Shown piece after piece: positions 297-22,735 of a stretch of DNA of 33,273 nt (position 1 is the stretch's first letter; the number at the start of each line of letters is the position of its first letter). The DNA is from Deltaproteobacteria bacterium. Its GTDB lineage: Bacteria; Desulfobacterota; Desulfobaccia; Desulfobaccales; 0-14-0-80-60-11. The notes beneath the pieces are model-generated. The model searched no databases, was not told where the DNA came from, and saw nothing but the letters and a program-made list of their open reading frames with translations. The DNA lies in the NCBI GenBank assembly GCA_026388765.1, contig JAPLJC010000160.1, positions 1-33,273 of the forward strand, written 5' to 3'. Both the position numbers and the translations under genes were made by a program.

Positions 297-3083
297 CTAC
301 GGAAGCCAGTCGTCGTCGTTTAAGGACAAGGTCAGGCCGCCGAACATGGAAATTTGTTTGTTGGCCTGCTTGAGCTTCAAGTTTTGGGTCTTTTCCAGGG
401 CTTCGTCCAGGCCGGCCATGAGGCGGGAGCGCCGGGGCTGCAAGGGGTCGAAGGCCCCTGCCTGGATCAGGGACTCCAGGACCTTGCGGTTCACCTTGTT
501 GAGGCTGATGCGTTCCAGAAAATCCCGGAAGCTCTCGAACCGGCCCGGGCCCCGGGCCTCCAGGATCTCCTGGATGGCCCCCAGGCCGACGTTTTTCACC
601 CCGGACAGGCCGTAGCGCACCTTGCCCTCTTCTACGGTAAAATCGCGGTCGCTCCGGTTGATATCCGGCGGCAGCAGTTCGATCCCCTGGTCCCGGGCCT
701 CCATGATATGTTTCGCCAGGGCCGTGGTGTTGTTGATTTCGCTGTTTAAGACCGCAGCCAAAAATTCCAGGGGATAGTGGGCCTTGAGATAGGCGGTCTG
801 ATAAGCCACCAGGGCATAGGCGGCGCTGTGGGACTTGTTGAAGCCATAGCCGGCGAATTTCTCGATCAGATTGAAGAGTTCTGTGGCCCTGGCCTTGGCC
901 ACCCCCCGGGTTACCGCGCCGGAGACAAACCGGTCCCGCTGGGCCGCCATCACCACCGGATCTTTCTTGCCCATGGCCCGGCGCAAAAGATCGGCTTCCG
1001 CCAGGGAGAAGCCCGACACCACCGCGGCGATCTGCATCACCTGTTCCTGATAGAGGATTACCCCGTAAGTCTCCCTGAGGGTGGGCTCCAATTGGGGCAA
1101 GAAATACTCCACCCGGGCCTCGCCGTGCTTGCGCCGGACATAATCGTCGTGCATGCCGGTTTCCATGGGGCCTGGCCGGTAGAGGGCCACCAGGGCGATG
1201 ATGTCCTCAAAGACGGTGGGCTTCAAGCGCACCATCAGGGCGCGCATCCCTTGACTCTCCAACTGGAAGACTCCGGCGGTGTTGGCGGCCTGCAGCAGCT
1301 GGAAGGTGGCGGCATCATTAAGCGGGATGGTGTGAATATCGAAATCGGCCAGGTGATTCTTTCTGATCAGCCGCACCGCCTGGTCGATGACCGTCAGGGT
1401 CCGCAGGCCCAGGAAGTCGAACTTCACCAGGCCCACCTTCTCCACCCCCTTCATGTCGAACTGGGTGACCAACTCACCCTTGTTGCCTTTGTAGAGAGGC
1501 AGGTATTCGATCAGGGGGCGGTCGGCGATGACCACCGCCGAGGCGTGGGTGGAGGCGTGCCGGGGCAGCCCCTCCAGAACCGCGGCGACATCCAGCACCT
1601 CTTTAACCGCGGGGTTGTTGTCCCGGAGCTCCCGGAGCCGCGGTTCCATCTGCAGGGACTGCTCCAGGGTGACGTTCAATTTTTCCGGCACCAGCTTGGC
1701 GATCCTGTCCACTTCCGCATAAGGTACTTCCAGGGCCCGGCCCACGTCCCGGATCACCTGGCGGGTCTTCATGCTGCCGAAGGTGGTAATGTGCGCCACG
1801 TTCTGCCAGCCGTAGGTCCGGGAGACGTAGTCGATGATCTCGCCCCGGCGCTCGTAGCAGAAGTCCACGTCGATATCCGGCGGGCTGACGCGCTCGGGGT
1901 TAAGGAAGCGTTCAAAGAAAAGGCCGTAGGCCAGGGGGTCCAGATCGGTGATCCTTAGGGCATAGGCTACCAGGCTCCCGGCGGCGGAGCCCCGGCCGGG
2001 TCCCACGGGGATCCGCTGTTGCCGGGCGTAATTGATGATATCCGCCACCACCAGAAAATAGCCGGCAAACCCCATCTTCACCAGGATGTCGATCTCGTAT
2101 TCCAGGCGCTGCCAGTAGGCCTCCTCAGCCTGGCGGGGATGGCCGGCGGGGGACCCCAAACGGGCCTTGAGCCCTTCCCGGGCCCGCTCGGCCATGAGGG
2201 ACTCCATGCTCTGGCCCGCGGCCTGGTGGTAGACCGGGAAGCGGTAAGTGCCCAGGTCCAGGGTAACGTCGCAGCGGGCCGCGATCTCCCCGGAAGCGGC
2301 CAGGGCCGCCGGGTGCGGGATGGACCGGGCCATCTCTGCCGGGCTCTTGAAATAGAGCTGGTCGGTCTGAAACTTCATGCGGCCGGCGCTGTTCACGGTC
2401 CGGCCCGTCTGGATGCAAAGCAGCGCATCCTGGGCCTTGGCGTCTTCGGGCTTGAGGTAATGCACGTCATTGGTGGCCACCAGAGGAATCCCCCAGCGGG
2501 GCGCCAGCTCGATCAGGGCTTCATTCACCTTGAGCTGCTCCGGCAATTCGTTCGCCTGCACCTCCAGGTAGAAGCGCCCGGGGAAGATCTCGGCGTATTC
2601 CCGGGCCGCGGCCTCGGCCCCTTCGGGGTCGTCGTTGACCAGGCGCTGGGCCACCTTGCCGTGTAGACAGGCGGACAGGGCGATCAGGCCGCCGTTCAAC
2701 TCTTGCAGGAGCTCCAGATCCACCCGGGGGCGGTAGTAAAAACCCTCCAGGTGGGCCCGGGTCACCAGCTGGATGAGGTTTTTGTAACCCTGGTTATTTT
2801 CCGCCAGCACCACCAGGTGGTTATTATCCCCTTTGCCGCCCTTGCGGTCCTGGCGGGAGCCTGGGGCCACGTAGAGCTCGCAGCCGAGAATCGGCTTGAT
2901 TCCCGCGGCGTTGGCCTTCTGATAAAAATCCAGGACCCCGAAGAGCGAGCCGTGGTCGGTGATGGCCACCGCGCCCATCTCGAAGGCCGCCGCCTGGACC
3001 AACAGGTCCTTGACGCGGGCGGCCCCGTCCAGCAGGCTGTAGGCGGTATGCACGTGCAGATGGACGAACTGGGACTCGGACAT
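297..3083 (-). CDS. dnaE: DNA polymerase III subunit alpha, ends at an in-frame TAG
   Basis: This is the catalytic subunit of the replicative DNA polymerase III. The 928 residues contain the N-terminal PHP domain (HLHVHTAYSLLDGA near residue 8), the polymerase palm with the PDIDVDF acidic motif near residue 400, fingers and thumb, and the helix-hairpin-helix region (GLSGVKNVG). The start is the ATG at 3083, with an AGGGAG ribosome site three bases upstream. Family members are usually about 1150 residues. Here the frame ends in TAG at 297-299, just before the OB-fold and tau-binding tail, yet the same frame continues as recognisable DnaE sequence down to position 1. Identity is certain; whether the protein is truncated, read through or affected by a sequence error cannot be told from the sequence. 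Confidence 0.96.
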   Translation of the reverse strand: MSESQFVHLHVHTAYSLLDGAARVKDLLVQAAAFEMGAVAITDHGSLFGVLDFYQKANAAGIKPILGCELYVAPGSRQDRKGGKGDNNHLVVLAENNQGYKNLIQLVTRAHLEGFYYRPRVDLELLQELNGGLIALSACLHGKVAQRLVNDDPEGAEAAAREYAEIFPGRFYLEVQANELPEQLKVNEALIELAPRWGIPLVATNDVHYLKPEDAKAQDALLCIQTGRTVNSAGRMKFQTDQLYFKSPAEMARSIPHPAALAASGEIAARCDVTLDLGTYRFPVYHQAAGQSMESLMAERAREGLKARLGSPAGHPRQAEEAYWQRLEYEIDILVKMGFAGYFLVVADIINYARQQRIPVGPGRGSAAGSLVAYALRITDLDPLAYGLFFERFLNPERVSPPDIDVDFCYERRGEIIDYVSRTYGWQNVAHITTFGSMKTRQVIRDVGRALEVPYAEVDRIAKLVPEKLNVTLEQSLQMEPRLRELRDNNPAVKEVLDVAAVLEGLPRHASTHASAVVIADRPLIEYLPLYKGNKGELVTQFDMKGVEKVGLVKFDFLGLRTLTVIDQAVRLIRKNHLADFDIHTIPLNDAATFQLLQAANTAGVFQLESQGMRALMVRLKPTVFEDIIALVALYRPGPMETGMHDDYVRRKHGEARVEYFLPQLEPTLRETYGVILYQEQVMQIAAVVSGFSLAEADLLRRAMGKKDPVVMAAQRDRFVSGAVTRGVAKARATELFNLIEKFAGYGFNKSHSAAYALVAYQTAYLKAHYPLEFLAAVLNSEINNTTALAKHIMEARDQGIELLPPDINRSDRDFTVEEGKVRYGLSGVKNVGLGAIQEILEARGPGRFESFRDFLERISLNKVNRKVLESLIQAGAFDPLQPRRSRLMAGLDEALEKTQNLKLKQANKQISMFGGLTLSLNDDDWLP

Positions 3084-3202: not shown

Positions 3203-3280
3203 GTAGGGTGCGCCCTGCGCACCCATAATGGTGGCACAGGTTTCCAACCTGTGCCTCACAGGCCGGAGGCCTGTGCCACT
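3203..3280. repeat. Two small intergenic palindromes
   Basis: GTAGGGTGCGC/GCGCACCC forms a hairpin at 3203-3224. A second unit at 3231-3280 contains GCACAGG..CCTGTGC and CACAGGCC..GGCCTGTG. The second unit belongs to the same GGTGGCACAGG family seen inside the hicA insertion and at 22490-22541 and 11934-11980. It lies between the convergent-side end of hicB and the dnaE promoter region. No gene is seen here. Confidence 0.7.
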
Positions 3281-3344
3281 AATTCAGGGTTCCGGCCATC
3301 ATACCTCGAATAGCCGGCCCGGGGCAAGGAGGAAGTGGGAAGGA

Positions 3345-3728
3345 TTAACTGGCCTTATCCGCCGGCTTTTTCACTCGGCGCCGCGCCCCTTCCTTCCGCC
3401 CCAGAGCCTCGGCCAGGACCGCGGTCACCAGGGTGTTCATGCTCACGCCTTCTTGTCTGGCCCTGGCCACCAGGCGGGCATGGAGACTTTTGGGTAGGCG
3501 TTGCACAAACTTGCCGCTCGGCCCCTCCCCCGGCTTGGGAATGGGGTCGCCCCATTTCTCTGCCGCTCGAAGCCAGGCGGCTTCGGCGTCCGCCCCGTTG
3601 CCGATGGCCTCCTCAACGGTCTCGCCATCGGACATACAGCCAGGCAAATCGGGAAAGGTGATGAGATAACCATCGCCCTCTTCAGCGGCCAAGGTGCGAA
3701 TTTCAAAGGGATATTTGGGCAATGCCAT
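3345..3728 (-). CDS. hicB: HicB-family antitoxin
   Basis: This 127-residue protein has the HicB fold: an N-terminal partial RNase H-like domain (YLITFPDLPGCMSDGETVEEA) and a C-terminal ribbon-helix-helix DNA-binding segment (KFVQRLPKSLHARLVARA, then EGVSMNTLVTAVLAEAL). HicB neutralises HicA and represses its own operon. The ATG at 3728 lies two bases past the ancestral hicA stop (TAG at 3731-3733), the normal hicA-hicB coupling. Because of the element inserted in hicA, an open frame now runs from the hicA start at 4166 straight into hicB, giving a potential 273-residue HicA-linker-HicB fusion. HicB itself looks intact, ending in TAA. Confidence 0.85.
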   Translation of the reverse strand: MALPKYPFEIRTLAAEEGDGYLITFPDLPGCMSDGETVEEAIGNGADAEAAWLRAAEKWGDPIPKPGEGPSGKFVQRLPKSLHARLVARARQEGVSMNTLVTAVLAEALGRKEGARRRVKKPADKAS

Positions 3729-3730
3729 GA

Positions 3731-4166
3731 CTAGTTCCTTCGAACCCGGTCCACGAGTTCCACAAATTTTTTTATATTTTTTATATAAAAAACCTCTGCG
3801 AAAAGCCTTTTTGTCATCCTGAGCGAAGCGAAGGATCTCAGCTTTTGGTGGCACAGGCTTTCTAGCCTGTGCTGGAATGGGCACAGCCTGGAAAGGCTGT
3901 GCTACCAAACCGAGATTCTTCGGTCGCTTCACTCCCTCAGAATGACAGTTGAAAGGACTTTCGCAGAGGTCTCTATAAGGAGGTTTGATGGGCCTAGAGG
4001 CGGGAACGCTCAGATGCTCCCCCTCAGGATGACGGAAAACCACATGACTCGTGCCTTCATGATCCCAAAGGATCCCGTAACGATCAGCCAGACCTTTCAA
4101 ATCCTCGATCCGCCAGTCCCGGGGATTCCGCCGCATCTTCGCCAAGGTTTTGTCCGCCTGAACCAT
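3731..4166 (-). pseudogene. hicA: HicA-family mRNA interferase, split by a MITE-like insertion
   Basis: HicA is a small double-stranded-RNA-binding-fold mRNA endonuclease whose catalytic histidine sits in a G-T/S-S-H motif, here GTSHVVFRHPEGE. Residues 1-64 are normal up to RPIKPPY. The sequence then enters a palindromic element (3789-3973). Beyond the element, in another frame, lies the missing C-terminus YIKNIKKFVELVDRVRRN followed by TAG (3731-3733). Removing 190 bases (the element plus one copy of the 5-bp target duplication) restores an 81-residue HicA, the usual size for the family. The insertion shifts frame so that hicA now reads through into hicB. Whether the fused product keeps toxicity is unknown. 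Confidence 0.8.
3784..3978. mobile_element. 185-bp MITE-like palindromic element with 5-bp target duplication
   Basis: The element spans about 3789-3973. Its ends are inverted repeats: ACCTCTGCGAAAAG on the left, and CTTTCGCAGAGGT on the right. Inside are nested inverted pairs: GTCATCCTGAGCGAAGCGAA facing the opposed TCGCTTCACTCCCTCAGAA, and GGTGGCACAGGCTTT facing AAAGGCTGTGCTACC. The whole unit is one large imperfect palindrome without a transposase gene. TATAA occurs on both flanks (3784-3788 and 3974-3978), consistent with a target duplication. Excision of 190 bases restores hicA. A related, more degenerate copy lies at 22564-22735. A transposase would have to act in trans. Confidence 0.75.
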
Positions 4167-4171
4167 ATTTT

Positions 4172-4199
4172 ATGATACTATATTTAGTATTGATGTCAA
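4172..4199 (-). promoter_or_regulatory. hicAB promoter with overlapping palindromic operator
   Basis: On the minus strand, TTGACA (4194-4199) is 16 bases from TATCAT (4172-4177). A perfect inverted repeat ATACTA-N4-TAGTAT (4175-4190) fills the spacer and overlaps the -10 box. That is the expected layout for autorepression by the HicB ribbon-helix-helix domain. The first ATG (4166) is only five bases past the -10 box, so the transcript may be leaderless or start at the internal Met11. Confidence 0.6.
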
Positions 4200-22473: not shown

Positions 22474-22489
22474 CACTTCGCAATTAATT

Positions 22490-22541
22490 GGTAGCACAGG
22501 CTTTCCAGCCTGTGCAGGCGCAGGCTAAAGCCTGCGGCTAC
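22490..22541. repeat. GCACAGG tandem hairpins
   Basis: GCACAGGCTTTCCAGCCTG followed by GCAGGCTAAAGCCTGCGGCT. Same family as 11934-11980 and 3231-3280. Confidence 0.65.
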
Positions 22542-22563
22542 CCGGATAATGGCAAGCAACCTG

Positions 22564-22735
22564 AGACCTGTGCGAAAGCCCCCTCAGTTGTCATTCTGAG
22601 GAAGCGAAGCGACCGAAGAATCTCGCTTTTTGGTAACACGGCCTTTCCAGGCTGTGCCGAAAATTCTCCACAGGTTAGAAACCTGTGCCACCGAAATGCG
22701 ATATCTTTCGCTGCGCGCATGATGACAACTGCGAA
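22564..22735. mobile_element. Degenerate second copy of the composite palindromic element
   Basis: It starts GAGACCTGTGCGAAAG, nearly identical to the hicA element end GAGACCTCTGCGAAAG. It then repeats its internal order: GTTGTCATTCTGAGGAAGCG, GAAGAATCTCG, a GGTAACACGGCCTTTCC hairpin arm, a CACAGG..CCTGTGCCACC hairpin and a final ATGATGACAAC. The far end is poorly conserved and no target duplication is visible. Confidence 0.55.

What the first reader, a model, noticed from the sequence alone, without database searches (positions are those of the whole stretch)
3345..4166. MITE-like insertion turns a HicA-HicB pair into one reading frame
A 185-bp palindromic element with a TATAA duplication sits in hicA. 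Removing 190 bases restores an 81-residue HicA with its TAG two bases before the hicB ATG. With the insertion, the frame runs open through the element and into hicB in frame, predicting HicA(1-64)-linker-HicB of 273 residues. A toxin tethered to its antitoxin by a transposon-derived linker would be a neat route to toxin inactivation or to a new regulator.
Basis: partly seen in the sequence, partly recalled or inferred. Interest (0 to 1): 0.68.

Follow-up and report, generated by a model that had tools for sequence, protein, structure and literature searches.

The report
Mobile-repeat insertion breaks HicA toxin gene
A short mobile DNA repeat has landed in a bacterial toxin gene, removed the toxin's last helix and, by a common accident of frame, left an open reading frame that runs on into the neighbouring intact antitoxin gene; most likely this is an ordinary disabling insertion and not a new kind of fused regulator.

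Summary
A 185-bp palindromic repeat (3789-3973), flanked by TATAA duplications, sits in hicA after codon 64. The frame stays open through it into hicB, giving 273 codons. The repeat is a MITE with at least 16 near-full-length copies in this genome. Of 80 HicB relatives, 45 have a cleanly parsed intact HicA of 68-89 residues ending at or near the hicB ATG; none carries the 273-codon frame.

The tethered-pair reading is weaker. The lost part is the C-terminal helix, not a strand. hicB keeps its own Shine-Dalgarno and ATG, and the promoter-operator is intact. The element's frame is open in every close copy checked, and the copy in L002 reads into an unrelated downstream gene in the same way, so the fused frame needs no selection. 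The RNA hairpin (-105 kcal/mol) ends in six U and may reduce hicB transcription. Natural HicA-HicB-RHH fusions (Class 11, PMC10865869) and in-frame MITE fusions (PMC10969869) are already known.

[quoted passage not shown] Similar hicA losses occur in several relatives.

The parts
4172..4199 (-). Promoter-like site of hicA: TTGACA, 16 nt, TATCAT (11 of 12)
   Evidence: strong consensus match only
4174..4191 (-). Palindromic operator AATACTAAATATAGTATC (GATACT-N6-AGTATC type) overlapping the promoter; predicted HicB binding site
   Evidence: at most 2 mismatches in 25 of 46 loci, shuffles mean 0.5, max 2; sequences
3975..4166 (-). hicA remnant, codons 1-64; keeps every residue invariant in 24 aligned HicA sequences, including His41 (alignment numbering)
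   Evidence: 72% identical to L064 HicA
3974..3978 (.). TATAA target-site duplication, copy 1
3789..3973 (.). 185-bp MITE with terminal inverted repeats (ACCTCTGCGAAA...); open frame on both strands
3784..3788 (.). TATAA target-site duplication, copy 2
3787..3977 (-). RNA hairpin of the element followed by six U: terminator-like on the hicAB strand
   Evidence: -105.4 kcal/mol, z -12; termination itself is inference
3731..3788 (-). 3' end of hicA, out of frame after the insertion; own frame encodes IKNIKKFVELVDRVRRN then TAG
3736..3740 (-). Shine-Dalgarno AAGGA, 7 nt before the hicB ATG
3345..3728 (-). hicB, 127 residues, HicB-like domain plus ribbon-helix-helix
   Evidence: PF15919 3.4e-10, PF05534 1.5e-9; relatives up to 70% identical
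3345..4166 (-). Composite 273-codon open frame HicA(1-64)-MITE linker-HicB

Best explanation
A non-autonomous MITE transposed into hicA of a class 4-type hicAB operon (HicB with an RHH domain), duplicated TATAA, and removed the C-terminal helix of HicA from the reading frame. Shown: the insertion, the duplications, the multi-copy element, the intact form in relatives, the preserved promoter-operator and the preserved hicB with its own ribosome site. Inferred: HicA is inactive; hicB is still translated mainly from its own start and acts as an orphan repressor of its own promoter; the 273-residue fusion is at most a read-through by-product without toxin function, made because this MITE subfamily carries an open frame on each strand and 190 bp happens to bring hicB into frame.
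For: At least 16 near-full-length copies in the genome and perfect 5-bp duplications at several copies. 45 relatives have a complete HicA adjacent to or overlapping hicB, none with the insertion. The lost residues form helix 62-79 in the modelled relative, whose best fold matches, although weak, are solved HicA proteins 1whz and 6g26. hicB has its own Shine-Dalgarno, as in most relatives. In all close copies analysed, one frame per strand is open; the copy in L002 also reads in frame into an unrelated gene whose likely own start lies about 30 codons further on. Loss of hicA with hicB kept recurs in L070, L095, L126, L127 and others.
Against: No expression data. HicA residues 1-64 keep all conserved positions, so residual activity cannot be excluded. 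No genome of the same genus was found among those searched, so neither selection on hicB nor persistence of the fused frame could be measured. If the hairpin terminates transcription, hicB itself may be silent.
Confidence: 0.8

Rival explanations
1. The 273-residue HicA'-linker-HicB fusion is the main product and works as a tethered, Class 11-like regulator bound to the hicAB operator.
For: No stop codon between hicA ATG and hicB. Promoter and operator intact. Natural HicA-HicB-RHH fusions exist (PMC10865869). In L095 and L127 deletions have also put hicB in frame with the hicA start.
Against: The HicA helix is lost; linker predicted largely disordered (pLDDT below 50 over residues 58-98 and most of 124-142). 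hicB keeps its own start. The frame is a general property of the MITE and also runs into an unrelated gene.
Confidence: 0.08
2. The element acts as a transcription terminator or polar insertion, so hicB is also silenced and the whole locus is a decaying pseudo-operon.
For: Very stable hairpin directly followed by six U on the hicAB strand. The consensus scan shows no second promoter between element and hicB.
Against: hicB has no stop or frameshift and matches relatives up to 70%. The very long stem is not a typical intrinsic terminator and the scan did not list it. Not exclusive with toxin inactivation.
Confidence: 0.25
3. Assembly artefact: contigs were mis-joined at a multi-copy repeat.
For: The record is a fragmented draft (263 contigs) and some copies of this element lie at or near contig ends (L007, L010, L015).
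Against: Perfect 5-bp duplication on both sides, and the two flanks encode consecutive parts of one HicA, then hicB in normal spacing. A wrong join would not be expected to give this.
Confidence: 0.03

Closest known systems
hicAB Class 4 toxin-antitoxin operons (HicB with C-terminal RHH), Gerdes 2024, PMC10865869
   Same: Gene order, HicB domains, tight hicA-hicB spacing, palindromic operator in the promoter
   Different: hicA interrupted after codon 64 by a MITE; C-terminal helix lost
Class 11 monocistronic fused HicAB (HicA-HicB-RHH/HTH), PMC10865869
   Same: One open frame with the domain order HicA, HicB, RHH
   Different: HicA domain incomplete, linker is a mobile repeat, separate hicB start kept, no relative with the same frame
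Rickettsia palindromic elements and other intragenic MITEs giving in-frame fusions (reviewed in PMC10969869)
   Same: Short palindromic multi-copy element with an open frame, sitting in a gene and keeping the frame open
   Different: Here it destroys the end of the host gene and joins two genes; no relation by sequence was tested
Insertional inactivation by MITEs, e.g. the mcy cluster of Anabaena (PMC10969869)
   Same: Gene disabled by a short non-autonomous element
   Different: Target is a toxin-antitoxin gene with its antitoxin kept

Membership tests
MITE | Short element with terminal inverted repeats and no transposase gene | tested here: met
   185 bp, 19-nt arms 89% complementary
MITE | Target-site duplication | tested here: met
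   TATAA here; AGGTA, AAGTT, AACTT, AAATT, ATGGC at other copies
MITE | Multiple copies | tested here: met
   at least 16 near-full-length copies in this genome; the same terminal sequence in 17 of 22 genomes of the family
MITE | Autonomous parent with matching ends | tested here: inconclusive
   No transposase-bearing element with these ends found; the long pair looked at (L161) carries a lipoprotein-like gene; the list was cut
hicAB Class 4 | HicB-like domain with C-terminal RHH | tested here: met
   PF15919 and PF05534 above cut-offs
hicAB Class 4 | Complete HicA dsRBD fold (helix-3 strands-helix) | tested here: not met
   C-terminal helix not in frame
hicAB Class 4 | Palindromic operator in the hicA promoter | tested here: met
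   binding itself not tested
Class 11 fused HicAB | Single open frame HicA-HicB-DNA-binding domain | tested here: met
   273 codons
Class 11 fused HicAB | Canonical HicA domain | tested here: not met
   residues after 64 replaced by MITE translation
Class 11 fused HicAB | Fusion conserved in related genomes | tested here: not met
   80 HicB relatives, none with this fusion
Rickettsia palindromic elements | Conserved open frame in the palindrome | tested here: met
   one open frame per strand in the close copies analysed
Rickettsia palindromic elements | Sequence relation to RPE families | not tested
   no RPE sequences compared

The most novel reading that the evidence does not exclude
A MITE has created a living HicA'-linker-HicB fusion that is expressed as one protein and acts as a non-toxic regulator, showing a one-step route from bicistronic hicAB to a Class 11-like monocistronic form.
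Probability: 0.07. Interest if true: 0.55.

Novelty: new member of a known kind. Interest (0 to 1): 0.27.

Why it matters
It is a clean example of how a toxin-antitoxin pair is defused: the toxin is cut by a mobile repeat while antitoxin, start site and operator stay. With the deletion cases in relatives (L095, L126, L127) it suggests that toxin loss with antitoxin retention recurs in this HicB lineage, which could be counted across genomes. It also warns that long open frames through this MITE family are expected by-products and not evidence of fusion proteins.

Tried and rejected
Profile search of PDB sequences with 24 HicA relatives found nothing at E 0.01; fold search gave only weak hits, but the top three are HicA proteins. 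Mixed alignments of the fusion with separate HicA and HicB rows misplaced rows, so the fusion was folded with HicB rows only; the low confidence of its HicA part is therefore not evidence. The best HicB hit among searched phylum relatives (G036) is itself degraded and lacks hicA. The long element pair in G010 carries no transposase. Assembly error was considered and rejected on the duplication and flank continuity.

Full report
Observation. The minus-strand frame 4166-3345 is open for 273 codons. Codons 1-64 are the start of HicA. The next 61 or so codons come from a 185-bp palindromic element (3789-3973) flanked by TATAA (3784-3788, 3974-3978). The frame then runs out of frame through the end of hicA and enters hicB at its ATG (3728) in frame. 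The downstream flank in its own frame gives IKNIKKFVELVDRVRRN and TAG two bases before the hicB ATG. The two flanks were compared with relatives separately and were not joined.

The element. It has at least 16 near-full-length copies in the 3.7-Mb draft genome, the best other copy 97% identical. Ends read near GAGACCTCTGCGAAA, and several copies have perfect 5-bp duplications. The same end sequence occurs in 17 of 22 genomes of the family. No transposase-bearing parent was found. As RNA on the hicAB strand it folds at -105 kcal/mol (z -12) and ends in six U.

Empty sites. A scan of GTDB contigs gave 80 HicB relatives at 55-70% identity. A HicA-like frame lies directly upstream in 68 of them, some of these partial or truncated. 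In 45 loci the pair could be parsed cleanly: HicA of 68-89 residues, most often overlapping the hicB ATG by 4 bases, with hicB in the +2 frame in 28. The window HicA fragment keeps every residue invariant in 24 aligned sequences and is 72% identical to the nearest. In several family members the dnaE and lipoprotein genes stand next to each other without hicAB, and no HicB hit lies on those dnaE contigs, so hicAB is probably an accessory insertion at this place.

What is lost. The modelled relative has helices 3-13 and 20-30, strands 33-35, 41-45 and 51-55, and helix 62-79. The insertion after residue 64 removes nearly the whole last helix. In modelled HicAB complexes of Classes 5 and 6 the HicB sheet aligns with helix 2 of HicA (PMC10865869). 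A tethered toxin-antitoxin pair would therefore lack a main contact.

Is the fused frame special? In every close copy analysed the element has exactly one open frame on each strand. The minus-frame peptide is nearly the same in all. The copy in L002 appears to sit between genes, and its open frame also reads in frame into a downstream gene, whose likely own start lies about 30 codons further on. With one open frame in three, and hicB +2 to hicA in most relatives, a 190-bp insertion joins the two frames often. This is an argument by counting; no simulation was made. hicB keeps AAGGA seven bases before its ATG, so it can be translated alone.

Regulation. A GATACT-N6-AGTATC palindrome overlaps the hicA promoter in the window and in relatives: 25 of 46 loci with at most two mismatches, against 0.5 expected from shuffles. 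It is the likely HicB operator. Binding is inference.

Parallels. In L095 (Geomonas anaerohicana) about 28 hicA codons are joined in frame to hicB by a deletion. In L127 about five hicA codons lead directly into hicB. L126 and L070 keep only a stub. Toxin loss with antitoxin kept therefore recurs. In L095 and L127 hicB seems to depend on the hicA start; in the window it does not.

Known background. Natural monocistronic HicA-HicB-RHH proteins are Class 11 of Gerdes 2024 (PMC10865869). In-frame MITE fusions, foremost the Rickettsia palindromic elements, and MITE inactivation of genes are reviewed in PMC10969869. The case combines two known things.

Verdict. The description is right. The interpretation as toxin inactivation is likely. 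The interpretation as a new tethered regulator is possible but unsupported.

Noticed in passing
window 297-3083 (-), codon 299-297: dnaE stops at an in-frame TAG after 928 codons, although the frame continues open as DnaE-like sequence to the contig end; dnaE frames in the family are 1140-1279 codons. Real mutation, recoding or sequence error is not known.
   Followed up: partly
window 22488-22728: A second, more diverged copy of the same MITE family (about 81%) plus a fragment lies in this window.
   Followed up: no
window 3229-3283: A small palindrome GTGGCACAGG...CCTGTGCCAC downstream of hicB resembles the core of the MITE, which may be a composite of two repeats.
   Followed up: no
L161 (G010:C177:3466-4595): A pair of MITE ends 1.1 kb apart encloses a lipoprotein-like gene, as if the MITE had captured a cargo gene.
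   Followed up: partly
L095, L126, L127 upstream of hicB: Independent deletions leave only the hicA start joined to or leading into hicB, with operator-like sequence kept in L126 and L127.
   Followed up: partly
window 3765-3788: A 9-bp tandem TATAAAAAA beside the insertion adds three codons to the hicA tail compared with the aligned relatives; it may be linked to the insertion event.
   Followed up: no
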